Below, in pieces: positions 31-54,087 of a stretch of DNA of 64,000 nt. The stretch covers positions 62,001-126,000 of the forward strand of contig JAJPJI010000013.1 of the NCBI GenBank assembly GCA_021324305.1. Reading direction: 5' to 3'. Below the pieces are notes generated by a model. The model was not told the origin of the DNA. It saw nothing but the letters and a program-made list of their open reading frames with translations, and did not search any database. A program made the translations under genes and the position numbers. Source of the DNA: Gammaproteobacteria bacterium. GTDB taxonomy: Bacteria; Pseudomonadota; Gammaproteobacteria; DSM-16500. Position 1 is the stretch's first letter; the number at the start of each line of letters is the position of its first letter.

Positions 31-1392
31 TTATCGGGTAATCCTGAAATAGGATTCTGCCCCGTTCAGACTGTTTGCTTCTTTCCACTCGGAAAGCTTG
101 CTGATCGCAAAATCCAGCATCCTGCAATAAAGCCCGTCAGGTTTGACCGCCTGATTATCCGCAGCGCCAGCACGGGCGTCTACCAGAAACTGAAACAGCG
201 CATCGATTTCAGGATTGCTGCCGGCAAATGCCAGGATTTTTTTCACTTCTGTTTGATAATGACGCGTCTTGCCTGAATAAAATGGAGCGGCATATCTTGC
301 AAACAGATTTTTCACTGCGAGATTTAGCGCATGCCGCATATCTTTCTGCTGCGCATTGAATCCGTCATCCCAATGCTCCGAAAAATCGACAGAGTTATTC
401 TTGCCCTGATTAAATGCGCTGCCCACCGCAAAAAATCCATAATTGCACGGCACAATAAATCTCGCGAAGCTGGCCTTGCTGATATTTGAGTCGAGAGTAT
501 AAAAGCATCTTATCGTTTCAATTTGCGGTTTTGGCGGATATGCCACACTCTCCAGCCAGTGTTCACGCAGCTGCAGCTTTTTCTCCTTCAACAAATAGCC
601 ATTTTTCAGGGTCACAATGAAAATGGCAGGTGTACTCACGGCATAAAAATAATCCAGTTTTTCATCATAATTTTCTGGTGTATGAAAATGTCGATAGCTG
701 TTCGCCTGGTCGAAATTATCAAAAAGACGAAGGACATGATCGGAACCATGCAACGAAGCAAAAATCGTTTGCGTGGAGAAGGGACCGCGATAAGCCTTGT
801 TTCCGGCATTCCAGACATATCCCAACAGATTCTCCAGCGTCGAGCCCGTCAAATCAATGGGATTGCCAACGGCATAGTAAGTCTCGCGTACGGGGAAACT
901 TGCGAGATCATTTGCACTCATGGCGCTGGCTGCACGAAATCGGCGTTTCGCACGCAGGTCAAGATACCGAAAAACAAGGCCTTTGATTTCTGCGGGCAGC
1001 AATTTGAACCCGTTAATTGATTTCTTTATTAGGCCATACTGGACTTTTACCTTTTCAAGGTAGGCATGAATCTCATCATCCAGACTGGCGCTGGGCTCCA
1101 CCTTGCGCGTCATATTGTTGCGGCGGGTTTTCAGGTTTGATAGTACGGTTTCAGTCTCGACCCCGGAAGGCATGAATTCTTCCGCAATACCGGATTGCAC
1201 CCTGGAAATCAGCGACTCTGCATCATTCATCAATTTATTGATTTTTTCCTCATTCTCGTAATCTGAAAAATTCTCCAGCTTCCTTTTAGAACTCACCAGG
1301 GATGGAACGATGAATGGCAGAAGTCCGCCAAATTCAGCCACCAGCAAATTGTGCTCCGCAACAAGACAATTGAACTGACTTCGGATGTTCAT
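31..1392 (-). CDS. F-box-like protein of unknown function, possible effector
   Basis: 453 residues. Residues about 130-165 begin LLPAEIKGLVFRYLDL and continue to a conserved-looking Ser/Ala-rich helix. This matches the F-box pattern of LPxEI followed by hydrophobic helices, the eukaryotic motif that binds Skp1 in SCF ubiquitin ligases. Before it lies a charged, mainly helical segment (about 35-125). The C-terminal 290 residues carry no motif I recognise. There is no signal peptide or clear membrane segment. ATG start at 1392 is preceded by GAGGA at good spacing. It is divergent from the ParB homologue. F-box proteins are known effectors in Legionella and relatives. That this one is an effector is inferred from the motif alone. 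Confidence 0.6.
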   Translation of the reverse strand: MNIRSQFNCLVAEHNLLVAEFGGLLPFIVPSLVSSKRKLENFSDYENEEKINKLMNDAESLISRVQSGIAEEFMPSGVETETVLSNLKTRRNNMTRKVEPSASLDDEIHAYLEKVKVQYGLIKKSINGFKLLPAEIKGLVFRYLDLRAKRRFRAASAMSANDLASFPVRETYYAVGNPIDLTGSTLENLLGYVWNAGNKAYRGPFSTQTIFASLHGSDHVLRLFDNFDQANSYRHFHTPENYDEKLDYFYAVSTPAIFIVTLKNGYLLKEKKLQLREHWLESVAYPPKPQIETIRCFYTLDSNISKASFARFIVPCNYGFFAVGSAFNQGKNNSVDFSEHWDDGFNAQQKDMRHALNLAVKNLFARYAAPFYSGKTRHYQTEVKKILAFAGSNPEIDALFQFLVDARAGAADNQAVKPDGLYCRMLDFAISKLSEWKEANSLNGAESYFRITR

Positions 1393-2451: not shown

Positions 2452-4158
2452 TTATTTACTCTGAGATTTAAAGATGATGGTTTGAATGCCATGCGCTGGA
2501 ATATACAAGTTCAAAAATATATTTCCACCCTCTCTGGAATTATCCTGAATGTAATAATTCCTACCGCTGAAATCACGATTCAGCACCACAAGCGTGATTG
2601 TTTCAGGAATATTGCCATGCGCAGGGACCTTGAACGCAACTTCTTCCAATGGAAATGGGCCCTTGGACTGGCTTGCCAGCATGACCGATTCTGGCCGGAG
2701 AAACTTGCTGAAATGGCCTAGATAAAAATACATGGGCTGAATATATAAAGTTTGCGTGCTGAGGTCAGCCAGTATGGGTGCATCAACTTTATTGTTCGCC
2801 CAATTTGGGCCGCCCTGCATATCCAGTACCAGATTCCAGTCCATCCAGCCGGACACAGAATGATTGAGATCACTGATGATATCATGCGCGTAAGCTTCGC
2901 CCCGGGACCAGCTGCCAAGTGACGGCCCACCCATCAAGGGTAAATAGCCTTCACACGCTTCTGTTCCAAGAATGAATTTTTTATTCACGCCGCTCCGTTT
3001 ATTTAATGCCTGATATGCATCATCAAGATTTCCATAATACCTGTCCAAATTCATATACCAGTGCAGGCCTGCACCATCGACATATTGGGCAACTTCCGGA
3101 TCATCGAGCATGGTCATTCTTCGTTGGATGGTTGTCACCTGGTCATCGTGAACCATGAGATTGATTTTGGAGCCGTATTCCTGCTCAAATTGCCTGAGTG
3201 CCGGACCTAAATAAGCTTTAACAAAATTTCCTTCTTCCATTTCTGTTGAATACATGGTCTGCCAGGTTTGCATGAATTTTTTGCCAAGATAGCCGGAATC
3301 AACCGGCTCATTCTGGACGGTGACACCCCAAAATCGTATCTGCTGCGCTCGATATGCCCGAAAGAATTTAATGAAATAATCCGACCATACCTGTTGATAT
3401 TGCGGCCACAAATTTCCATGCACCATGCTGTAATTTGACTTCATCCAGGCTGGTGCAGACCAGGGACTTGCGAACAGCCGCAAGGGCTGATGTGTATTCT
3501 CTTCAACTGCCTGCATGGCAGACTTAATCATGGGAATTTTGTATTCGAGATCCTCAGGCTGCAGAGCGAAATTGGTCAGGTTAAGATCCGGTTCATCGGC
3601 ATAAGAATATTGTGAAGCCAAATCCGAGCACCCATTCAGGCGAGGTACGGAAATTGATTTGCCGTTTTTTTCGATGACTTGGCGGCAGGAGAAATCATTG
3701 CTCGCCATTGGAACCCGGCCCAATGAATATTCGATTCCCTGCGCTGAGAAATACGCCTTTATCAGGGCATTCTGCAAGGCTTTTGACATATTCCCAAACA
3801 GCATGGAAGCACTGTCTGTAAATGCCCCGCCAAAACCGATGATTGGTGCCGTGTCCTTTAAATCAGACTCATTGATGACGATATAATGCCAGCCGCCATT
3901 ATTCTTGCCTGTAAATGCCTGACTGGTTTGTTCCATCCATTTGCCGCCGCTCGACGTTTGATAAACAACCGCCTGCTCGTTCAGCCTCTCCAGCGTCAGC
4001 GCCGGTATAGCAAGCGGACACTGTGAATCGGTGCAGGTAACAACGTTTGCCATTGCCGTGTCTGCCGCGAAGATCATCTGAGAAGAAAGCAGCGCTGCTG
4101 CCAGGACATTATTTACAAATAGTGTTCGCAGAAAATAACCAGACAATCCATTTTTCAT
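2452..4158 (-). CDS. Secreted glycoside hydrolase family 30 (glucosylceramidase-like)
   Basis: 568 residues from the chosen ATG at 4158, which has GGGAAG upstream. A TTG 15 bases further up would overlap that site. Residues about 1-35 are a signal peptide with a hydrophobic core ending near IFAA, so the enzyme is exported. The GH30 (beta/alpha)8 fold is marked by GFGGAFTDSAS, LFASPWSAPAWMKSN, the acid/base Glu in TVQNEP (E284) and the nucleophile Glu in LGTEACEG (E400). The C-terminal beta domain completes the family layout. GH30 contains human lysosomal glucosylceramidase and bacterial beta-glucanases; both catalytic residues are present. The substrate could be host glucosylceramide or a beta-glucan, which sequence alone does not settle. 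It stands alone with no sugar-uptake genes next to it. Confidence 0.88.
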   Translation of the reverse strand: MKNGLSGYFLRTLFVNNVLAAALLSSQMIFAADTAMANVVTCTDSQCPLAIPALTLERLNEQAVVYQTSSGGKWMEQTSQAFTGKNNGGWHYIVINESDLKDTAPIIGFGGAFTDSASMLFGNMSKALQNALIKAYFSAQGIEYSLGRVPMASNDFSCRQVIEKNGKSISVPRLNGCSDLASQYSYADEPDLNLTNFALQPEDLEYKIPMIKSAMQAVEENTHQPLRLFASPWSAPAWMKSNYSMVHGNLWPQYQQVWSDYFIKFFRAYRAQQIRFWGVTVQNEPVDSGYLGKKFMQTWQTMYSTEMEEGNFVKAYLGPALRQFEQEYGSKINLMVHDDQVTTIQRRMTMLDDPEVAQYVDGAGLHWYMNLDRYYGNLDDAYQALNKRSGVNKKFILGTEACEGYLPLMGGPSLGSWSRGEAYAHDIISDLNHSVSGWMDWNLVLDMQGGPNWANNKVDAPILADLSTQTLYIQPMYFYLGHFSKFLRPESVMLASQSKGPFPLEEVAFKVPAHGNIPETITLVVLNRDFSGRNYYIQDNSREGGNIFLNLYIPAHGIQTIIFKSQSK

Positions 4159-4202
4159 TTTGACGCTTCCCAATCATGCGCTGTTAAAAGTATCAGAGCC
4201 TT

Positions 4203-9235: not shown

Positions 9236-11323
9236 TCAATTCTTAATGCTGCGCTTGGCAGGTTTTGGATGCTCCTTCTGATACAGTTTGATGGCATCAT
9301 TGACATTATCAACCAGTTCGCTGCCACCCATACTGCGCAGAAAGAACTTATTCGAACCGAACAAACCGCGCTTGACCTTGTCTAAACGACTTTCTACACG
9401 TTTAATCATGACTTCAGGTGTGCTAATTTCAGTATCATTGACAATTTTCAGTATCTCAGACATGTCATCCAAACGTCTTTGGGATGCCGCTCTGTCCTGT
9501 TTTTTAATTGCTGATTTGGTGTAGGTGTCATCCAGATAAATGATCACAGCCAGCTTGATGAATGCCCGCAGATCTGCCAGGTTTTTTGACTGTTCATTTT
9601 CCCCGACTACAGGTTCTGTCATGAGCAGACTAACAACCGTGCTAAGTTGATGTTCTTGCTGCTTGTTGCCTGGCTGATAGACATCATCCAGAGAGGCTAG
9701 CCTGTCTTTAGCTCTGGCATTAATTTTTTTCATTTTTTCCGTTACGATTACCATTTCATCTATACCAGGCGGAAGTTTTTTCATTGTATTGTCAGCACTT
9801 TCAAACTCATCATTGACTGACTTGATAAGTTTATAAAAGCGGGACTTTTCTTTAGGTTCCAGCCATTTCATGACGCGTTCCACAGAAGCGGATGTTTTAT
9901 AGAATTGTTCCGACTGTTTTTTGAATTCGTTGTTCAGGGACTCGAGTTTCTCCTCGATATCTTTTTTAGATCGGCATTCCTTAAACGCCGTTACACCCAA
10001 CCCATCAACAAATGCTTTAATACAGGCTTTTTCATCCGTAATTTTACCCAGTTGCTTGTTAATGAGCTTAATGATCTTAATGATCTGCGCAGTGTCTCCT
10101 TCAGTGGATTTAATTTGTCTGCATGCTTTCCAAGCTTCCAGACCAACGACATTTGCCTGGCTGATTTTTTTCAACTCTTCGTTATCCTTGATTTCCTTAT
10201 TTTTATAAGCAAGATTAATCTGCTCAAACACTCGCAATGCGTCTTCAACTGGCAAACGCTCATCTTGATTTGCCCGGGTCATGTCTTGAATGGTTTCAAA
10301 AACAGTTTCCTTTTCATTAAGGTCATTAATTTCATCGAGTTTCTCTCTATTAAATTCGGTATCTTTTGCTGCATTCTCAACGCATTTAACTGGCGGTAAA
10401 TTTTTTGATATGTGAGGCATATCCCAGATTTCAGAAAGTATCTTTCCCATGGCATAGCTGTCTGTCGATTTGTCCAGTGAACTGACATCGGCATTCAATT
10501 GCTCCAGAGGCGCATACTTAGGTGTCCCGCCTACGGTTCCAGACAGGTTGTCCAGACGTTTTCCTAACCCAAGATCAAAAATATATACTTCACCTGTCGT
10601 TCTGTTGTATTTGATGTTGAGCGGCTTGAGATCCAGATGCAAAATGTTTTTGTCATGAAACAATTCCTGAAGCTTGCGTAATAACTGTATGGAAAGATGC
10701 AGCCGCTCCTGTGTGCTTAATGGATTTTTGTCATTCGCTAGAACACGGATTAAATCCTCACCGGGTAAACGTTTCATGACTGTATAAGCTGTCTCAACCT
10801 GAGGAATTGTCTTTTCTTCTTGCAGCTCTGGTCTGCTTGATGGTTCAACAACAATAGCTGGCTTTTTGACATGGATATCCGGAATTTCGCTGGTTAACTC
10901 GTATTCATGCGTCACACTTGCTTCGAAATCAACCGTCTCTTCTCCTGCTTCCTCACGTTTAACGCCGCGTGATTTGCTGTTCTTGAAAACAAGCCTCCCG
11001 CCAAGATCAGGCGCCAGTGTTCCTTCTATGCGCAGAAACGAGCCTGCCGCACCCTTGCCTATCGGTCTATTATCATTACTCACGACTTCAAAGCGATCTT
11101 GAGCTGGATTACTTGCACGCTCTCTATGAATAATGTCATGCGTAAGCTGGAATTGATACTGCACGCCATTTATGACAATCACATGGACAGCGTCTTTAGA
11201 AAATTTTTTATTCCTCTTGTTCTTGATGAGATAGCGTCGCAGGATGCGTGTTTTGATGTCACCTACTTCGAGCTGTGTAGGATCAATTGTGCCCAGATTT
11301 TTGGGTTTTTTTCGTAAGAACAT
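9236..11323 (-). CDS. Eukaryotic-like Ser/Thr protein kinase-like protein, variant motifs
   Basis: 695 residues. The kinase-like core spans about residues 80-375. It has a degenerate glycine loop GKGAAGSF (89-96), LHLDLKPLN where HRDLKPxN is usual (catalytic D231, K233, N236), DLG (250-252) instead of DFG, and GGTPKYAPLE as the activation-loop end. The catalytic Asp, Lys and Asn are kept, so activity is possible, but HRD and DFG are both substituted. The remaining 320 residues are helical and highly charged and look coiled-coil rich. There is no signal or membrane segment. It shares the N-terminal build of the two kinases near 20-24 kb. A translocated effector is plausible but only inferred. 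Confidence 0.8.
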   Translation of the reverse strand: MFLRKKPKNLGTIDPTQLEVGDIKTRILRRYLIKNKRNKKFSKDAVHVIVINGVQYQFQLTHDIIHRERASNPAQDRFEVVSNDNRPIGKGAAGSFLRIEGTLAPDLGGRLVFKNSKSRGVKREEAGEETVDFEASVTHEYELTSEIPDIHVKKPAIVVEPSSRPELQEEKTIPQVETAYTVMKRLPGEDLIRVLANDKNPLSTQERLHLSIQLLRKLQELFHDKNILHLDLKPLNIKYNRTTGEVYIFDLGLGKRLDNLSGTVGGTPKYAPLEQLNADVSSLDKSTDSYAMGKILSEIWDMPHISKNLPPVKCVENAAKDTEFNREKLDEINDLNEKETVFETIQDMTRANQDERLPVEDALRVFEQINLAYKNKEIKDNEELKKISQANVVGLEAWKACRQIKSTEGDTAQIIKIIKLINKQLGKITDEKACIKAFVDGLGVTAFKECRSKKDIEEKLESLNNEFKKQSEQFYKTSASVERVMKWLEPKEKSRFYKLIKSVNDEFESADNTMKKLPPGIDEMVIVTEKMKKINARAKDRLASLDDVYQPGNKQQEHQLSTVVSLLMTEPVVGENEQSKNLADLRAFIKLAVIIYLDDTYTKSAIKKQDRAASQRRLDDMSEILKIVNDTEISTPEVMIKRVESRLDKVKRGLFGSNKFFLRSMGGSELVDNVNDAIKLYQKEHPKPAKRSIKN

Positions 11324-17418: not shown

Positions 17419-18264
17419 TCAAGCTGGTGTTAATTGCTCCATGATTGCTTTATTCACCAGCGGCCTGGACAGGCAAAAACATTTTAACATTGCCTCATAA
17501 AATTGCGCACGATACACAGCCTGCCTGTTTTGCAGATACCATTCCGCACAATCGTAAAGCGTCCTGAAGGGTGAATTTGCTTCGGTATCATTCAGCAGAT
17601 AGTCTTTTCCCCATCCATGGTTCACAATAACGTGCGGAACAAACCATCGGAGCACGCTGTAAGATTTATTTTGTGTCGCATAATAATTTTCTGTTGTATC
17701 TGCCACTTCGGCCAGCAAATCACTGTTTTCGGGCGACAATCCATAAGGATAGGCCAAATCAGCAAGCGTGATATCGGTTTGATAATAATCAATCGGCTGA
17801 TTCCCGAAAACATCACGAAGCCGGGTACTGGCACCGGCGCTCAGCAAAATCCTGATCGCAGGATCGGACCGCAGCATGCAGGCATAGTGTAATGCAGTAT
17901 ATTCCCGATAATCCTGCTCATTGAGACTTGCCCCTAACGCCACCAGTTTACTGATGATATTGACAGCATCGATTTTTGCTGCGAGCAAAAGCGGTGTATT
18001 TGAGCCTGTCGGCCAAAAGTCTTTTGTGTTCAACGCAATTTTTTCAACATCCAGGTCAAGAAGCTTGTCTGCCGCAACAAGCCTGTTCCAGGCGAGGGCC
18101 TGAAGCAAAAACGTATTCGCGTGCCGGGTGCGATGATCCCTGCCAAACAGTGATACCACTTCTGGCTGTTCATCTGTGAATTGAGCACCTGATTCGAGCT
18201 GATCGACAATTTCATCCGCGGACAGCGTCTCTGAATCAGATAAAGAGGAAAAAATATTTAACAC
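17419..18264 (-). CDS. Ankyrin-repeat protein
   Basis: 281 residues. At least two ankyrin repeats are clear: about residues 87-119 (SNTPLLLAAKIDAVNIISKL, ending LGASLNEQD) and 120-152 (YTALHYACM, then RILLSAGASTRLRDVFGNQP). A degenerate repeat precedes them at about 48-80. The N-terminal 45 residues and the C-terminal 120 residues show no known domain. There is no signal peptide. Ankyrin repeats bind proteins and are frequent in host-directed proteins of intracellular bacteria. The partner cannot be told from sequence. Single-gene unit convergent with the multi-span gene. Confidence 0.8.
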   Translation of the reverse strand: MLNIFSSLSDSETLSADEIVDQLESGAQFTDEQPEVVSLFGRDHRTRHANTFLLQALAWNRLVAADKLLDLDVEKIALNTKDFWPTGSNTPLLLAAKIDAVNIISKLVALGASLNEQDYREYTALHYACMLRSDPAIRILLSAGASTRLRDVFGNQPIDYYQTDITLADLAYPYGLSPENSDLLAEVADTTENYYATQNKSYSVLRWFVPHVIVNHGWGKDYLLNDTEANSPFRTLYDCAEWYLQNRQAVYRAQFYEAMLKCFCLSRPLVNKAIMEQLTPA

Positions 18265-45150: not shown

Positions 45151-46346
<1,196 letters not shown>

Positions 46347-46421: not shown

Positions 46422-48410
46422 TCATTTCTTCGCATATTCTTCAAGGACTGCCGCGATTTCATCATAGCTGATAGGTTTTGCAATAATGCGGTTCATTCCT
46501 GAATCAAATGCCTGCTGGCGATCCCGTTCGAGAATATGTGCGGTCATGGCAACAATCGGCATCTCTTTTAAATCAGGACACTGGCGCAAACGCTTGACGA
46601 TATCAAATCCACTGATATCCGGCAGACCCACATCCATGAAAATCAGATCGTATTTGTTGATTTCACACACGTTTTCCAGCACTTTCTGGCCATTATCGAC
46701 CACATCCACGCAACAACCGAAATCTTCCAGCATGATTTTGGCTATTTTCTGGTTAATCAGGTTGTCTTCGACAAGCAGGACATTCGACTTATATTGCGAC
46801 CGCTGCAGGAGTGATGATTTATCCGCAGCCATATTCATGCCTGAATTCTTCGAATCGGACGATTGCAGCTTTAACGACAATGTGAATTTGAATTCGGATC
46901 CTTTTCCGACTTCGCTTTTAACTTCAATTTCACCGCCCATGGCTTCAACCAGCTGCTTGGTTATTGCGAGACCAAGACCGATTCCCCTGTGTTTACGATG
47001 ATATATTGAATCAATCTGACTGAATTTTTCAAAAATGCTTTCCAGTTTGTCACGACGGATTCCAATTCCTGTGTCAACCACCGTGACCTCAAACAAGGCC
47101 CTGGTCTTGGATTTTTTCGGGCAATTCACGATCACCTTGATGTAACCATCTTCGGTAAACTTAATCGCATTGCCTAATAAATTCACCAATACCTGCCTGA
47201 CGCGATTGGCATCTCCAATGACTGCGCTGGTCAAATCCGGGTTATATTCAAGGATCAAATCAATGCCTTTCTCGCGTGCTTGATATTGCAGGCTCTGGAC
47301 GATTTGAGTAAATAAACTGTAAAGATCAAATGGATCGTTCGAAAAAGACAGCTTTCCGGCTTCCAGCCTGGCGAAATCCAGAATATCACTCACCAGTGAG
47401 AGCAAACTGTTTCCGGCGTTACTGATGATATCGACATATTCTTCTGATTCAGCAGGAAGACCTTTCATTTTAAGAATTTGCGCCATTCCAAGGATTGCAT
47501 TTAGCGGTGTACGCAGCTCATGACTAATCATCGCCAAGAAGTCTGACTTAGCCTGGTTTGCCACTTCAGCTCGCTGCATGGCGTCCCTTAGCTTTTGTTC
47601 ATGCAAGACTTCCTTGGTGATGTCTTCAGCAATGCCCGCGAAACCAATGAAATTGTTTTTTTCATCCTGAATGGGAAAGCTGGTATCCTTGATCCATCTT
47701 ATGTCCCCCTCTGGAGTAAAAATACGATAACGATATTCATATTGCGCATCCTGGCCCATTTCCTTCAGGGTCTCAAATCGCGCCACATTGGATGCTTTCT
47801 CGCGGTCTTCGGGGTGCAGCGTATCCAGCCACGAATCAGGATTCTCGTATAAGCTGTCACGGCTTCTTCCCCACACTTTTTCATAACCGGGACTGAGATA
47901 TAATTGCTTGTTGCATGAGTTATCCCTTACCCAGAAGACGGCATGCACTTTTTCTGCGAAAAAACGAAAAAAATGGCTGGCTTGTTCCAGCTCTGCCAAT
48001 CTTAATTTTTCCTGGGTGACATCTTTAGCGATGCCTGCAAACCCGATAAACTGATGATTAGTATCATAGAGAGGGAAATTCACTTCCTGGATACGCCTGA
48101 TATCATTATCAGGGCGTATGATTCGATATTCCAAAAAGTTGGTCTGTCCTTCCTGCGGATTGTTCTTGATTCGGTTAATTTCAATCTCAACCTGTTTCCT
48201 GTCGTTCGGATGAACCGTCGAGAACCATGCGACACTGTCATCGTATAAGCTTTCGCATGTTCGTCCCCAGATTTTTTCATAGGCTGGACTGATATAAAGC
48301 TGGGTCTTATAATCAACATCACGGATCCAGAAAACATCCTGGCTCAGCTCGGCAAGCTTATAAAAGTACTTTCCCAGATTGATAACACTTGAGTCAGTTA
48401 ACGAGTTCAT
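46422..48410 (-). CDS. PAS-PAS hybrid sensor histidine kinase
   Basis: 662 residues. Two PAS domains lie at about 15-135 and 145-270; each repeats FWIRD/FWVRD, SPxYEKxWGR and EYR/R-I-PxGDIR. A HisKA domain has the phosphorylated His of SHELRTPLN (H297). HATPase_c has N414 in LLGNAIKF, DTGIG (446-450) and GIGLGLAI (477-484). A receiver domain (about 543-660) has DN at 549-550 and phospho-Asp D593 in FMDVGLP. There is no membrane segment, so it senses a cytoplasmic cue, perhaps redox or small molecules. No histidine phosphotransfer domain is attached, and its partner is not nearby. The signal is unknown. Confidence 0.93.
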   Translation of the reverse strand: MNSLTDSSVINLGKYFYKLAELSQDVFWIRDVDYKTQLYISPAYEKIWGRTCESLYDDSVAWFSTVHPNDRKQVEIEINRIKNNPQEGQTNFLEYRIIRPDNDIRRIQEVNFPLYDTNHQFIGFAGIAKDVTQEKLRLAELEQASHFFRFFAEKVHAVFWVRDNSCNKQLYLSPGYEKVWGRSRDSLYENPDSWLDTLHPEDREKASNVARFETLKEMGQDAQYEYRYRIFTPEGDIRWIKDTSFPIQDEKNNFIGFAGIAEDITKEVLHEQKLRDAMQRAEVANQAKSDFLAMISHELRTPLNAILGMAQILKMKGLPAESEEYVDIISNAGNSLLSLVSDILDFARLEAGKLSFSNDPFDLYSLFTQIVQSLQYQAREKGIDLILEYNPDLTSAVIGDANRVRQVLVNLLGNAIKFTEDGYIKVIVNCPKKSKTRALFEVTVVDTGIGIRRDKLESIFEKFSQIDSIYHRKHRGIGLGLAITKQLVEAMGGEIEVKSEVGKGSEFKFTLSLKLQSSDSKNSGMNMAADKSSLLQRSQYKSNVLLVEDNLINQKIAKIMLEDFGCCVDVVDNGQKVLENVCEINKYDLIFMDVGLPDISGFDIVKRLRQCPDLKEMPIVAMTAHILERDRQQAFDSGMNRIIAKPISYDEIAAVLEEYAKK

Positions 48411-48516
48411 GGCTCTAGAGACTTGTTTTTTATAAAAAAATTCGGATAAGATGTAATATTTCCAACTATTCTATCACTAGAATGACACAAAGCAAAAATA
48501 TACGAGGGTTACTGGT

Positions 48517-51500
48517 ATGATGCGACGCACAATTCAACCTCAAGCCGCCCAACGAAGCTTAATGCTGCTTGAAAGACTTTACCCCGGCACGACCAGTAAT
48601 CACCGCAGTGTTGCAGTCGAAATCACAGGGCCCATTAATCTTCCTGCCTTCAGGGAAGCATTCAAAAAGGTAATCAATCGCCATGAAATGCTTCGAGCGT
48701 ATGTCAAAGTCACCAATGAAGACAGGGTTTTTGAGATTTATGACTCAGCCGACTACCTCGATAAATTCACAACACTGAACAAATACATCGATGCTTCAGG
48801 AATAGTATCCAAGCCGAAACTTGAAGACTTTTACACGACCCTTAAAATTCTCAAGGAAGAGGAGTTTGTAGAAAAGCCATTCGACTTGCATAACATTCCT
48901 CTCTGGCGCAGCATCATTGTGAAGGTTGATGAAAATCGCTATCAATTTTCCATCATGTTCAATCACATCATCATCGATGAAGGCTCGATAGGCGTCATAT
49001 TAAGAGAGTTGTCGCATTTTTATAATCTCGAACTAGGCCAGTCTTCGCAAGCATCTCTCGATTTTATTCCCTCATTTGCAGAGCATGACATCAGTTTATC
49101 AACCCTCGAAAAAGAGGAGCGACTCGCTTACTGGAGCGAAAAGCTCAAAGACCTTAACACAACCAATTTGCAAACTGATGTTCCTCCGCAGCAATCGTTC
49201 AGATTCGCTGGCAAACGCATACGTTTCAAACTGGACAGTGATTTGATCGCGCAACTGGAAATCATCGCCAAATCAAAAGACTCCTCACTGAACCAGGTCA
49301 TGCTTGCAAGCCTGTATTCTCTTCTGTATCGATATAGCGGTGAAACTGATATCTGCCTGGGCATTACTTCAGCCAATCGCAGACATAAGGCTCTTGATTC
49401 AAAAATTGCGGAACAGATGGTCAACTGCTTTTTTAACAGCGTTCCGTTACGTCTGCAGTTTGATAAAAATGTTACTTTTCTGGAATTGCTCTCACAAACC
49501 AGGGTCACGTTGAGTGAAGCACTAAAAAAACAATTACCCCTGGATATCGTTTTTGAGGAAGCAATCAGTCCGGATACAAAAGCGTCATTGCTGACAGCTT
49601 CTCCATTTAACTGCCTGCTCGTTCTTAACAGGCTTAAGCCAACCCTGACTCTCACCGGCACAACCGCGTCACAACCTGTAGAGCTTGATTTTGGGAGATG
49701 CAAGTTCCCCTACTTTGGAATCAATCTTGATGAATACCCTGACGGCTCATACGATTGTTTTGTTGAATATAATACAGATTTGTTCTTTGAAGAAACGATG
49801 AATCGCCTGATCGGGCACTTCAAAAAAATTCTTCAATGCATCACAGAGCAGCCTAGCGCGAAGATTTCAACTCTGCCGCTTCTGCTGGATGAAGAAAAAA
49901 AACTGATTGCTGATTTTAACGCCACAACAAAAGAACCCGTCACACAAAATTTGGTACCCGATTATTTTCATGAATGCGCAGAAGCTTACCCCGACCATAT
50001 CGCACTGGTATTTCATCACAGCAATAGCAGCATTGAGAAACTGACCTATCGGGAACTGGACATACGATCATCGCAGCTTGCCAACTACCTCATACAGCAT
50101 GGCATTGGACCCAACATACCGGTTGGCATTTCACTAACGAGGTCCGCTAATCTTGTTGTAGCAATACTTGCAGTCCTCAAGGCCGGTGGTGCTGTCGTAA
50201 CCATGGAAACGGAAGAATGCGCATCCTTGTCTCACAAAATCAAGGATACCAAAATCCCGGTCGTCATCACTGATAGTTCAACCGCATCTCTTTTTAGCGA
50301 TCTCACAACTGACATCATAAATATCGATAATGAGAAAATCGGACACGATATTGCACAAGCTTTGCCGCCCGACAAACGACCGGCACTTAAACCAACTGAC
50401 ATCGCCTACATTATGTATACGTCGGGAACAAGCTCGGCTTCTGAAACGGGTGAAAAAGCCAACCCCAAAGGTGTAGTCATTACCCACGGAAGCTTTGCCA
50501 ATCTTCTTAACGCACTTTTTGATTTGCATCTAAAGCCTAACACTAAAGTCATCTGCACTGCACTTCCGACATTTGACGCCATATTCTATGACATGCTGGC
50601 GGCATGGACGACTCATGGTGAAATACATTTATGTTTCGAAGGTGGTCGATATTCTCCCCGAGTTCTTGAAGAAATCATAGCAAAAGAAAATATTAACTTT
50701 GGTGTCTTCTTGCCCAGTCTTTTATCCGAACTCAATCCTCAGCTGCCTCTTGAGTTTGTCATCAGCATGGGCGCTGTTCCCCATGAGGAAACCATGAAAA
50801 TCTGGGCAACCTCGCGCAAGGGCAGAGTTATCATGAATGGACTTGGCCACACTGAGGCAGGCGTTTGCACTTCAATCCACATTTACAAACCTGGCACAGA
50901 TCACACTATCACTGGCCAGCCAATCCGCAACATGCAAATGTTCATCATCAATCCTGAAAATTTATCTATTTGTCCGCTTGGCGTGCCTGGTGAAATTTAT
51001 CTGTCAGGTCCCAGTCTTGCCCAGGGATACATCGGGAATGAGAAACTGACAAATAAAAAATTCCCTCTACTCTCATATAATCCAGTTGACGGAACTTTTA
51101 AAAGGCTGGGTCCATCAGAAACCAGTGAAACCGCGATCAGAGTTTATGCGACAGGCGATTATGGTTGTTATCAATTAACACAGGATAAAAAAGTTGAAAT
51201 TAAATTCATCGGGCGCAAAGACAGAGTAATAAAAATTTATGGTGTCAGGGTTGATCTTGATGAAGTCGAATTCATTTTAAGAAAACATCCATCTATCAAA
51301 GATGTCGTTGTTCTTTCCAATCAGGAAAATACAGATTTGACGGCATATATGGTTCCCAGTTCAACCGGAATATCACCTGACAATCTTCGTCAGCATATCC
51401 AGGAATACCTTACTCAAACACTGCTGCCATCCGTTGCTCATCCCAAAACAATTTGCATACTCCCGGAACTGCGTCTCACCAGAAATGGGAAAATCGATAC

Positions 51501-51999
51501 CCGTGCCTTACCTGTAACCATTCCGGGTCAAAGTATAGACAAAACACGACCGCTAACAGAGTTACAAATCAGGATACGTGAGATCTGGGCTCACGTGTTA
51601 AAACGCGATGTTGAGCAAATAAGCATCTATCATTCTTATAAAGAGAACGGCGGCAATTCACTTTCGCTTGCAAGACTGGAAACTGAGTTGAATAAAAAAT
51701 TAGCATTTAATGAGTACGTTGGCATCAATATATTATCCAAGCATATGACTATCATCAGCCTTAGTGAGACACTTGCGCCATTATTAAAATCCAGCTCAGC
51801 TCTCTCAAAATTACCCGGTGATGCCTATCGCAATTCTGATGACACTGTTGTCTTTTTCAAAAAAAAAACCTCTCAGAAGCCCGAGGTACTCCAGCACATA
51901 CCGCAAAATACAGTGAAAAAGGAAACTGGTGGCACTGATACTCAAAATCATCAATCTCAAACAAGCCTTTCTTTTAAAACAACAGGAAATCTTGTTTGA
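48517..51999 (+). CDS. Single-module non-ribosomal peptide synthetase (C-A-PCP)
   Basis: 1160 residues. The condensation domain (about 1-450) has NHIIIDEG (149-156): the catalytic His (H150) and Asp are kept, but the first His of HHxxxDG is Asn. The adenylation domain (about 475-1000) shows YTSGT (634-638), FDAIFYD with D687 for the amino acid amine, NGLGHTE (774-780), GEIYLSGPSLAQGYIG, YATGD (877-881), GRKDRVIKIYG and NGKID with Lys992. A carrier domain follows (about 1013-1090) with GGNSLS, the Ser1048 that takes phosphopantetheine. The C-terminal 70 residues look disordered. There is no thioesterase in cis, but a thioesterase gene follows. Likely product is an N-acyl or N-aminoacyl amino acid; the substrate is not identified. 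Confidence 0.9.
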   Translation: MMRRTIQPQAAQRSLMLLERLYPGTTSNHRSVAVEITGPINLPAFREAFKKVINRHEMLRAYVKVTNEDRVFEIYDSADYLDKFTTLNKYIDASGIVSKPKLEDFYTTLKILKEEEFVEKPFDLHNIPLWRSIIVKVDENRYQFSIMFNHIIIDEGSIGVILRELSHFYNLELGQSSQASLDFIPSFAEHDISLSTLEKEERLAYWSEKLKDLNTTNLQTDVPPQQSFRFAGKRIRFKLDSDLIAQLEIIAKSKDSSLNQVMLASLYSLLYRYSGETDICLGITSANRRHKALDSKIAEQMVNCFFNSVPLRLQFDKNVTFLELLSQTRVTLSEALKKQLPLDIVFEEAISPDTKASLLTASPFNCLLVLNRLKPTLTLTGTTASQPVELDFGRCKFPYFGINLDEYPDGSYDCFVEYNTDLFFEETMNRLIGHFKKILQCITEQPSAKISTLPLLLDEEKKLIADFNATTKEPVTQNLVPDYFHECAEAYPDHIALVFHHSNSSIEKLTYRELDIRSSQLANYLIQHGIGPNIPVGISLTRSANLVVAILAVLKAGGAVVTMETEECASLSHKIKDTKIPVVITDSSTASLFSDLTTDIINIDNEKIGHDIAQALPPDKRPALKPTDIAYIMYTSGTSSASETGEKANPKGVVITHGSFANLLNALFDLHLKPNTKVICTALPTFDAIFYDMLAAWTTHGEIHLCFEGGRYSPRVLEEIIAKENINFGVFLPSLLSELNPQLPLEFVISMGAVPHEETMKIWATSRKGRVIMNGLGHTEAGVCTSIHIYKPGTDHTITGQPIRNMQMFIINPENLSICPLGVPGEIYLSGPSLAQGYIGNEKLTNKKFPLLSYNPVDGTFKRLGPSETSETAIRVYATGDYGCYQLTQDKKVEIKFIGRKDRVIKIYGVRVDLDEVEFILRKHPSIKDVVVLSNQENTDLTAYMVPSSTGISPDNLRQHIQEYLTQTLLPSVAHPKTICILPELRLTRNGKIDTRALPVTIPGQSIDKTRPLTELQIRIREIWAHVLKRDVEQISIYHSYKENGGNSLSLARLETELNKKLAFNEYVGINILSKHMTIISLSETLAPLLKSSSALSKLPGDAYRNSDDTVVFFKKKTSQKPEVLQHIPQNTVKKETGGTDTQNHQSQTSLSFKTTGNLV

Positions 52000-52120
52000 T
52001 AATCCGATACAAATATGAAACTATATGAATATAATTATAGAATTATTTGTGATACTTTACTGAGTTTAATCTAATCTAGGTTGATAATAATTATTACATT
52101 CTCTTTGGGGAGTAAGTAAG

Positions 52121-53494
52121 ATGCCATTTCTTAGAGTCAGATTTGAAGGAGAGCCTGAGTCTTCGGGCAATCTCACAGCTTATCCTACCAAGCCCAACCA
52201 GATCCCGCTTTTTTTCATCCCGGGTATTCTGGGGAATGGATCAGAATTTCAAAATATCATCGAGCAGCTAAGAGCCAATGGCGATCATAGACCTTTTTAT
52301 GTTTATTACCACCCTTCAATTGCACCTGATAAAAAGCACTCATACAAAGAAGATGCAACTCTGGAAGATCAAGCCAAGTTAATTGCAGAATGCATGCTGG
52401 ATATTCTACCCAAAGGCCCTCTCCCTCATCTTGTCGTAGGGTATTCATACGGATGCAGTCAGGCGGCATTGGCAGCCCGGCATCTCCCCGATGCACGGCT
52501 TTTTCTAATTGACGGTCCATCACCTGAATGCTCAAGGGAATACTTTACAAGCGACAATCCATCCTTAATTATTGACTTGTTCAATATTGTAAAATATGCG
52601 GCAATACTATCAGAAGATGACGGAGATTTTGCCAACAGTGTTTCCATTTCATCAGATTTGCTGGATAAGTGCAAAAAACTTGACCCGCTTAGTTGCATTG
52701 ATGAAATTTCAAAGTACATTTCGTTAAGAGTTGCTGGGATCAATCAATCCGAGTTTAATAAGTATTTAAAAATTGCCAAGCAAGGCATCAAGAATCTCGT
52801 TACTCCGTCGCCACCGGCATCTGAAACAGCTCTTCCGGAAAAAATTGTCACATTAATAACCAAGGAAACCTTGAAAAAGTATGGCAATCAGTATGCCGGA
52901 TGGGACAAGCATACTGAACGATTGCTCCTAGTTAATGATGAGCATCTTCAGAATGAAAACCACATGAGCTTATTAGAAGTTGATCAGGAAATGAAACTCG
53001 TTCATTCAATTGAGCGATTTGTTGCTCAGGAAACCAGACCTGAAAATCTGCTAGCATTGCATTTAAATTTCCTGTTGCAAACATACTGCAAAAGCGAACC
53101 AAATTTGGAAAGACAATCTCCAACATCTATCTCACCGGAAAGCCTTAGCCCAGAAATGCAAAGATCACCCAAATCCGTTACTCCTCCAAAAAAATCCAAA
53201 TCAGGTTTCTCCAGTCCTAGCACATCAGATATAGAAGATTTTAATTCTGATAATAGCGGCTCGCCAAGGGTTGAAACATTTAGCGACGAAGATGAAAATA
53301 TTTATGTAGGAGAAAACGAGGACAAAGTTAATCCATTGGAGTTTCTGGCTAATCTTGAACAAATCAAACGAAAACTGACTTTTTTCATGACGAATACTGA
53401 TCAAATGGCTATTCTTACCCAGAAAAAACTTGTCGATGAACAGCCAGTGACTTCATCACGCATGGGTCTGACACCAACCCCGCTCTCTCAGTAA
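52121..53494 (+). CDS. Thioesterase/alpha-beta hydrolase with disordered tail
   Basis: 457 residues. The hydrolase core (about 28-300) has the PLFFIPGILGNGSEF oxyanion region, the nucleophile elbow VVGYSYG (S109) and a possible catalytic His in ENHMSLLE (H281). The acidic residue is probably in or near LIDGPSP (D131), which is uncertain. This is the type seen in NRPS thioesterases. A Ser/Pro/acidic tail (about 330-457) is atypical for stand-alone type II thioesterases of about 250 residues. It follows the NRPS by 121 bases on the same strand; GGGGAG precedes the ATG. It likely releases or edits the carrier-bound product. That partnership is inferred. Confidence 0.8.
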   Translation: MPFLRVRFEGEPESSGNLTAYPTKPNQIPLFFIPGILGNGSEFQNIIEQLRANGDHRPFYVYYHPSIAPDKKHSYKEDATLEDQAKLIAECMLDILPKGPLPHLVVGYSYGCSQAALAARHLPDARLFLIDGPSPECSREYFTSDNPSLIIDLFNIVKYAAILSEDDGDFANSVSISSDLLDKCKKLDPLSCIDEISKYISLRVAGINQSEFNKYLKIAKQGIKNLVTPSPPASETALPEKIVTLITKETLKKYGNQYAGWDKHTERLLLVNDEHLQNENHMSLLEVDQEMKLVHSIERFVAQETRPENLLALHLNFLLQTYCKSEPNLERQSPTSISPESLSPEMQRSPKSVTPPKKSKSGFSSPSTSDIEDFNSDNSGSPRVETFSDEDENIYVGENEDKVNPLEFLANLEQIKRKLTFFMTNTDQMAILTQKKLVDEQPVTSSRMGLTPTPLSQ

Positions 53495-53631: not shown

Positions 53632-54087
53632 TTATTCGACCAATTTCAAGAATGGCTTGGCTCGTCCAATTGAAGGCTCGACTACGACGCCTGATTGCTG
53701 TTCGATTGATTCAATGCCGCCTGAGCCGCCTTCGATACCTTTAAGCTGCACAACTTCTTCGGTACCACTTTCAGCATCATCTTCAGCATCAAAGAAAATT
53801 CCCTCACCATTTTCTTCAGCATAAATAGCTAACACACCCTTGATCGGTGCTGAAATCATATGAATGACGCCAGAAAATGAAGCCTTGAATTCAACCAATT
53901 CATTAGATATTTTCAGATCACGAATAGCGGAAGGAGAAATATTAAATACAATCTCGCCTCCTTCAACATATTCCTTGGGTATTTTACAACGCGGGTTGTT
54001 TGCATCGATAACAAGTATAGGATTACAGTTACTATCAACTATCCATTGATAAAATGCACGTAGTAGGTATGGTCTGTTCGATAGCAT
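53632..54087 (-). CDS. sspB: ClpXP adaptor SspB
   Basis: 151 residues. SspB captures ssrA-tagged proteins and hands them to ClpXP. RPYLLRAFYQWIVDSNCNP (residues about 5-23) and VEGGEIVFNISPSAIRDL are the substrate-binding fold, and FSGVIHMISAPIKGVLAIYAEENGEGIFF follows in the core. The acidic linker after about 115 is variable. Known SspB ends in a ClpX-binding motif; here the last residues (IGRAKPFLKLVE) fit that region. It is downstream of sspA by 11 bases. Confidence 0.95.
   Translation of the reverse strand: MLSNRPYLLRAFYQWIVDSNCNPILVIDANNPRCKIPKEYVEGGEIVFNISPSAIRDLKISNELVEFKASFSGVIHMISAPIKGVLAIYAEENGEGIFFDAEDDAESGTEEVVQLKGIEGGSGGIESIEQQSGVVVEPSIGRAKPFLKLVE

What the first reader, a model, noticed from the sequence alone, without database searches (positions are those of the whole stretch)
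48517..53494. Compact one-module NRPS plus trans thioesterase: candidate new small-molecule pathway
A C-A-PCP synthetase is followed on the same strand by an alpha/beta hydrolase of thioesterase type. One module with a starting condensation domain can join an acyl or aminoacyl starter to one amino acid, so the likely product is an N-acyl or aminoacyl amino acid. The pair sits in a housekeeping region between a sensor kinase and sspB, with no mobile genes and no other biosynthetic genes. It may also read as more A/T-rich than the neighbouring core genes. Seen: all main A and PCP motifs and the thioesterase elbow. Inferred: that the two work together and what they make.
Basis: partly seen in the sequence, partly recalled or inferred. 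Interest (0 to 1): 0.78.

Follow-up and report, generated by a model that had tools for sequence, protein, structure and literature searches.

The report
Sensor-paired one-module peptide synthetase cassette
A small non-ribosomal peptide synthetase and a partner thioesterase are usually found with a sensor-protein gene beside them in one bacterial family, so the unit looks like a signal-controlled pathway for an unknown small molecule, sitting in a chromosomal spot whose contents change between species.

Summary
In detail: a 1160-aa C-A-PCP synthetase (48517-51999) and a 457-aa thioesterase-type hydrolase (52121-53494). The pair is conserved: 8 of 35 family genomes searched hold the synthetase, and in 6 of the 7 with a visible downstream flank the thioesterase follows. 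A PAS-PAS hybrid histidine kinase (46422-48410, minus) faces the synthetase; 6 of the 8 synthetase genomes have it there, one has a PAS-LuxR protein instead, one has neither; one kinase orthologue occurs without the synthetase. The site is not plain housekeeping: the BON-sspB interval holds different genes in different genomes. The condensation domain is the weak part: catalytic His kept in 5 of 7 copies, motif Gly in 0 of 7, N-lobe absent in the eighth, while adenylation, carrier and thioesterase residues are almost fully kept. Starter-C class stayed unresolved. Best reading: a PAS-controlled monomodular NRPS plus trans thioesterase making a small acylated or dimeric amino-acid product; product, donor and control are inferred. 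New variant of a known kind.

The parts
46422..48410 (-). PAS-PAS-HisKA-HATPase-receiver hybrid histidine kinase, divergent from the NRPS
   Evidence: Pfam; orthologues in 7 of 36 family genomes, 6 of them next to the NRPS and divergent from it; phospho-acceptor His and receiver Asp motifs visible in 6 of 6
48411..48516 (.). divergent intergenic region between kinase and NRPS
   Evidence: 106 bases, read; no shared motif seen by eye in seven regions
48517..51999 (+). monomodular NRPS, C-A-PCP, 1160 aa, with a C-terminal tail
   Evidence: 8 orthologues counted, own included
48541..49908 (+). condensation domain, residues 9-464
   Evidence: Pfam; one clade of 7 orthologues, 100/99
48958..48987 (+). 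C3 motif FNHIIIDEGS, second His at residue 150
   Evidence: second His in 5 of 7, Asp in 7 of 7, Gly in 0 of 7; N-lobe absent in G027
49966..51510 (+). adenylation domain, about residues 484-998, with an 8-residue longer A3 loop than typical
   Evidence: Pfam; catalytic positions; loop seen in alignment
51550..51726 (+). peptidyl carrier domain, Ser1048 as pantetheine site
   Evidence: Pfam; Ser kept in 7 of 7 copies that reach it
52121..53494 (+). trans thioesterase-type alpha/beta hydrolase, 457 aa; Ser109, Asp131, His281
   Evidence: Pfam; these residues invariant in 6 of 6; fold
53084..53332 (+). low-confidence Ser/Pro/Thr-rich tail of the thioesterase, about residues 322-404
   Evidence: pLDDT around 33; Ser+Pro+Thr fraction of the last 110 residues above the rest in 6 of 6 homologues
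45765..46346 (+). flank: lipoprotein-like protein, here called BON
   Evidence: ORF; name recalled, not scanned; a match in 35 of 36 family genomes, paralogues included
53632..54087 (-). flank: sspB
   Evidence: Pfam SspB 94.7 bits; found in 30 of 36 family genomes

Best explanation
A family-restricted cassette of three genes: a PAS-PAS hybrid sensor kinase and, facing it, a monomodular NRPS followed by a trans thioesterase. Likely working: the genome's only recognised phosphopantetheinyl transferase charges the carrier domain; the adenylation domain loads one amino acid, probably hydrophobic; the condensation domain, in this copy, joins it to a donor that does not come from another recognised NRPS module (acyl-CoA, acyl carrier protein, or a second loaded copy of the same protein), because no other condensation domain was found; the thioesterase releases the product. 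The kinase reads a cue through its PAS domains and controls when the two genes are used. Shown: gene content, conserved pairing, conserved active-site residues, kinase link, variable spot. Inferred: substrate, donor, order of steps, control by the kinase, product.
For: Thioesterase directly downstream in 6 of 7 synthetase genomes with visible flank. Facing kinase in 6 of 8; PAS-LuxR protein in a seventh. A3 Ser, Gly, Lys, Asp235 equivalent and A5 Glu in 8 of 8; A8 Arg, A10 Lys, carrier Ser in 7 of 7 that reach them. Thioesterase Ser, Asp, His in 6 of 6. One phosphopantetheinyl transferase of the larger kind. Single Condensation match in the genome. Kinases of the NRPS loci lie on one side of a 100/100 branch.
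Against: Second His of the condensation motif lost in G005 and G011, N-lobe lost in G027, motif Gly absent in 7 of 7. Kinase absent from the G005 contig and a kinase orthologue in G013 without the NRPS. No thioesterase in G033. No transporter or second biosynthetic gene is part of the conserved neighbourhood. No shared intergenic motif seen. Pocket code matches no recalled code beyond 5 of 10.
Confidence: 0.5

Rival explanations
1. Signal circuit: the NRPS-thioesterase product is itself the cue sensed by the facing PAS kinase (or by the PAS-LuxR protein in G033), so the cassette is a synthase-sensor pair for cell-cell or self signalling.
For: Kinase and NRPS co-occur and face each other in 6 genomes; the eighth genome keeps a PAS part with a different output; a signalling role was proposed for Legionella NRPS clusters beside regulators (PMC5126622 section 20).
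Against: The kinase is 58-76% conserved while the adenylation pocket codes differ in all 8 copies, so one shared ligand is not obvious. PAS kinases are common: 24 first-look candidates in the own genome. Regulation without product sensing explains the same facts.
Confidence: 0.2
2. The condensation domain is a platform, as X domains are in glycopeptide synthetases; the pair only activates one amino acid and releases or transfers it, and no acyl or peptide bond is made.
For: Second His lost in 2 of 7, Gly in 7 of 7, N-lobe missing in an eighth, while A, PCP and thioesterase residues stay. X domains are inactive C relatives with altered HHxxxDG (PMC8949500 passages).
Against: The window copy and four others keep the second His and the Asp; the essential residue is the second His (PMC1894796 passages); 5 of 13 reference C or E domains in my set also lack the motif Gly.
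Confidence: 0.2
3. The module is decaying: an old pathway kept in few genomes, with different parts lost in each.
For: 8 of 35 genomes only; N-lobe loss in G027, His loss in G005 and G011, no thioesterase in G033, no kinase in G005; A3 reads SSSGTT in G005 and A7 has Lys for Gly in G027.
Against: The window and G010 copies are full length without internal stops and keep the A, PCP and thioesterase residues.
Confidence: 0.1
4. NRPS and thioesterase are delivered into host cells by the type IVB secretion system and act there.
For: Three DotI/IcmL matches in the genome; protein-kinase and ankyrin genes in the same window; other genes of the same spot in relatives look ankyrin-like or F-box-like by eye; Ser/Pro/Thr-rich tails on 6 of 6 thioesterases.
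Against: No delivery signal was tested; a carrier domain needs pantetheine charging first; the G027 synthetase has almost no tail; tails were not compared with other proteins of the genome.
Confidence: 0.06

Closest known systems
Monomodular NRPS clusters of Legionella (Tobias et al. 2016, PMC5126622; section 20 and passages read)
   Same: One-module NRPSs; a single Sfp-type transferase and no AcpS; clusters B-D lie beside a transcriptional regulator and were proposed to make signals
   Different: Those regulators are described as transcriptional, not as a facing PAS hybrid kinase; cluster F is described as one module with A, T and C. Homology to any of these clusters was not tested here
Pyreudione synthetase of Pseudomonas fluorescens (PMC11904905, abstract start and passages)
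   Same: A minimal NRPS (so titled in its reference list) making small amoebicidal alkaloids; by recall a one-module C-A-T-TE enzyme
   Different: Here the thioesterase is a separate gene with a tail; no product is known; domain layout of the pyreudione enzyme is recalled, not checked
LgrA, linear gramicidin synthetase (best PDB sequence match)
   Same: C-A-PCP domains align over residues 119-1071
   Different: LgrA is multidomain with a formylation start; the condensation motif here is altered
[not shown]
   Same: Alpha/beta hydrolase core with helical lid; Ser, Asp, His
   Different: Free-standing, about 390-460 aa, with a long tail; release and editing types score too close to separate
PAS-LuxR regulators of Streptomyces clusters (PMC9774167, abstract start only)
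   Same: A PAS protein encoded beside a biosynthetic gene, as in G033
   Different: In the window the PAS part drives a hybrid kinase, not a DNA-binding domain

Membership tests
NRPS module C-A-PCP | Condensation, AMP-binding and PP-binding domains in order | tested here: met
   All over Pfam cut-offs
NRPS module C-A-PCP | A-domain catalytic residues and carrier Ser | tested here: met
NRPS module C-A-PCP | HHxxxDG condensation motif | tested here: inconclusive
   NHIIIDE: second His and Asp kept, first His and Gly not
Starter condensation domain | Groups with starter C domains in a tree | tested here: inconclusive
   No labelled starter set was at hand; deep forks open among 20 domains
NRPS-type thioesterase | PF00975 match and Ser-Asp-His | tested here: met
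   33.9 bits against 26.4; three residues invariant in 6 of 6
Type I against type II thioesterase | Closer fold to release domains or to editing enzymes | tested here: inconclusive
   [not shown]
Hybrid sensor histidine kinase | PAS, HisKA, HATPase and receiver domains | tested here: met
Synthase-sensor signalling pair | Product binds or drives the sensor | not testable with these tools
   Only co-occurrence was tested
Type IVB secreted protein | Translocation into a host cell | not testable with these tools
   Only presence of DotI/IcmL matches was seen
Legionella cluster F | Sequence homology to it | not tested
   No Legionella sequence was compared

The most novel reading that the evidence does not exclude
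A monomodular NRPS and its thioesterase are themselves host-delivered proteins: cargo of an effector-exchange spot, switched on through a PAS kinase, and making or releasing a small molecule inside the eukaryotic host cell.
Probability: 0.06. Interest if true: 0.88.

Novelty: new variant of a known kind. Interest (0 to 1): 0.45.

Why it matters
If right, the cassette is a very small, self-contained, sensor-linked biosynthetic unit, found so far only in this bacterial family in the samples searched. Its 8 natural variants, some with a damaged condensation domain, make the question 'what does a lone C-A-PCP module do, and is its C domain needed?' directly testable. It also flags the BON-sspB interval as a place where sensor kinases recurrently face exchangeable genes of unknown function.

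Tried and rejected
Starter-C assignment: a tree of 20 C or E domains left the deep forks open. Recent horizontal transfer from base composition: low GC in the window, not in the synthetases of three relatives. Anti-phage defence: 0 PADLOC families at E 1e-5 for the three proteins. Plasmid spread: no thioesterase match at E 1e-5 in 72,556 plasmid records. Substrate prediction: 25 recalled pocket codes gave at most 5 of 10 identities for the window copy, tied between Val, Tyr, Trp and Phe codes. Shared regulatory motif in seven kinase-NRPS or upstream regions: none seen by eye. That the orphan 'CIGY' proteins (my name) of the same spot are cyclodipeptide synthases: no Pfam family at E 0.05 for four of the five and a 0.048 non-specific hit for the fifth, best PDB E 0.13; dropped. 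Literature for this cassette: searches gave no listed paper whose title or abstract start describes it; only openly licensed PubMed Central papers are held, and searches listed 15 of 44 and 8 of 10 papers.

Errors and limits. In one search the outgroup row of the kinase tree was a wrong ORF (a 430-aa ORF overwrote the kinase); the tree was rebuilt without it, and only one search is relied on. The script failed on a file name. The NRPS search covered 35 of the 36 family genomes; G056 was not searched with it, and the Fisher table counts it as lacking. One search's list of matches was cut. One search scored only 3 first-look candidates per genome. Spot contents rest on 16 stretches from 14 genomes; G019, G032 and G034 look adjacent from coordinates only. 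One G013 genome shows a kinase orthologue without the NRPS, and G005 carries both the NRPS and a weak CIGY match (E 5e-9, contig C60, which also bears a second sspB match), so the two cargo types are not strictly exclusive.

Full report
1. What is there. The two ORFs are as stated. The first, 1160 aa, carries Condensation, AMP-binding, AMP-binding_C and PP-binding domains, all over Pfam cut-offs; the second, 457 aa, matches Thioesterase PF00975 at 33.9 bits (cut-off 26.4). Of 92 NCBIfam models matching the synthetase, none of the 25 shown reached its own cut-off; none matched the thioesterase. The condensation domain is the only one recognised in the 2.89-Mb, 92% complete assembly. One phosphopantetheinyl transferase is recognised; its ORF matches ACPS and AASDHPPT_N, so it is of the larger, Sfp-like kind. 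A single Sfp-type enzyme without AcpS is also reported for Legionella (PMC5126622, passages). Charging of the carrier is therefore possible, but this enzyme is no pathway marker.

2. Relatives. The synthetase was searched in 56 genomes: 35 of the family, 21 of other families of the class. I count 8 orthologues, own copy included: G000, G010, G005, G011, G029, G022, G033, G027. Identity to the window protein in the alignment is 51% (G010), 38 (G005), 34 (G011), 34 (G029), 40 (G027, shortened), 35 (G022, cut by the contig end) and 33 (G033). Outside the family the best matches by E-value (G049, G038, G035, G044) are 27-33% identical and sit in other architectures or fragments; I count none as an orthologue. 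The thioesterase was found in 6 of 36 family genomes: G000, G010, G005, G011, G029, G027, each time directly downstream of the synthetase. G022 cannot be judged, as its contig ends inside the synthetase; G033 has none. In a class-wide sample of 369 genomes the thioesterase profile matched 9; only G000 and G027 over the full length, the other 7 over part of the hydrolase, in frames of 955 to 4609 aa. No plasmid record matched.

3. The third gene. The gene facing the synthetase is a PAS-PAS-HisKA-HATPase-receiver kinase. Orthologues at E 1e-100 or better occur in 7 of 36 family genomes: G000, G010, G011, G029, G027 and G022, all next to the synthetase and divergent from it, and G013 (48% over 434 residues), where no synthetase was found and the kinase is read in the same direction as the BON gene. 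In a class sample, 3 of 369 genomes matched at E 1e-120, the only outsider being G265 at 44% over 516 residues. On a tree of 17 kinases from this spot the six NRPS-linked ones lie on one side of a 100/100 branch, with G013 among them. G005 has the end of BON and then the synthetase, with no trace of the kinase on its contig by tblastn. In G033 the neighbour, read towards the synthetase, is a 267-aa protein with a PAS_3-like part (21.2 bits, under the cut-off of 25.6; its best blastp matches to the NRPS-linked kinases are 33-40% identical) and a LuxR-type GerE domain (48.1 bits, cut-off 23.5). So a PAS protein stands beside the synthetase in 7 of 8 genomes. Over 36 genomes (6 both, 1 kinase only, 2 NRPS only, 27 neither) Fisher's test gives p 9.5e-5; this ignores shared descent and counts G056, not searched for the NRPS, as lacking. 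The kinase is better conserved (58-76%) than the synthetase (33-51%).

4. The place. A BON match is found in 35 of 36 family genomes, paralogues included, and sspB in 30 of 36. In 13 genomes without the synthetase in between I read the interval from BON to sspB: 10 hold at least one kinase-like ORF 30-39% identical to the window kinase (split in G021 and G028; one whole and one split in G020), G017 holds other ORFs only, and G033 and G023 are nearly empty. In 5 of the 10 (G006, G001, G007, G008, G009) the kinase faces an orphan protein with a CIGY-like motif; a profile of it matched 7 of 36 genomes, all of one genus, G005 weakly; no Pfam or PDB relative was found that I would credit. Ankyrin-like and F-box-like ORFs lie there too, judged by eye. 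The synthetase occupies the spot in G000, G010, G005, G011, G027 and, as far as the contig goes, G022; in G033 it lies elsewhere (contig C93, while BON and sspB are neighbours on C166); in G029 the context is unresolved. G005 has a group II intron reverse transcriptase and G027 a glpK-like ORF (by eye) between thioesterase and sspB. The spot thus changes content, and a kinase facing its partner gene recurs there.

6. Reading. The window copy keeps what is needed to load an amino acid and release a product, and probably enough to condense. With no second recognised condensation domain in the genome, the donor is likely an acyl-CoA, an acyl carrier protein or a second loaded copy of the protein. 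I make no substrate call: the pocket code DAYFIMGVCK is mostly hydrophobic but shares at most 5 of 10 letters with 25 recalled codes. That the kinase controls the pair is inferred from co-occurrence and divergent order. That it senses the product is possible but not favoured, since the kinase changes slowly while the pocket codes differ in all 8 copies. Delivery into a host cell is the boldest reading not excluded: three DotI/IcmL matches are present, the window has protein-kinase and ankyrin genes and the thioesterases carry Ser/Pro/Thr-rich tails, but nothing tested shows delivery.

7. Verdict. A real, conserved, family-restricted cassette, larger by one gene than reported and placed in a variable spot. 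It is a variant of a known kind: monomodular NRPSs beside regulators are already reported in Legionella (PMC5126622, section 20). I found no paper on this cassette in searches, which cover only openly licensed PubMed Central papers.

Noticed in passing
window 9236-11323 (-), 20090-22015 (-), 22054-24039 (-): Three genes with a eukaryotic-type protein kinase domain (Pkinase 55.3, 75.6 and 79.5 bits) in one 64-kb window, among cell-division and envelope genes.
   Followed up: partly
window 17419-18264 (-): Ankyrin-repeat protein (Ank_2 38.8 bits).
   Followed up: partly
window 2452-4173 (-): Glycosyl hydrolase family 30 protein (295.3 bits), glucosylceramidase-like by recall.
   Followed up: partly
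window 31-1392 (-): 453-aa ORF with a stretch that looks F-box-like by eye; no Pfam match at E 0.001.
   Followed up: partly
L052:3021-4217, L053:1551-2606, L054:4830-6530, L055:3308-4903, L057:3126-4712: Orphan 'CIGY' protein family facing a PAS kinase in the BON-sspB spot of five genomes; profile matched 7 of 36 family genomes, all of one genus; no credible Pfam or PDB match. Function unknown.
   Followed up: partly
L034:4866-5669 (-): In G033 the neighbour of the NRPS is a PAS-LuxR (GerE) protein, not a kinase: a sensory part with a different output.
   Followed up: partly
L029:5339-6715 (-): Group II intron reverse transcriptase between thioesterase and sspB in G005: the spot has taken up a mobile element there.
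   Followed up: no
G000:C35:2380-4336 (L075-L077): Three adjacent DotI/IcmL matches in the window's genome, so a type IVB secretion system is likely present.
   Followed up: no
L035:1171-1884 (G000 contig C22): The only recognised phosphopantetheinyl transferase is of the larger Sfp-like kind; no AcpS-length second match in the 92% complete assembly.
   Followed up: partly
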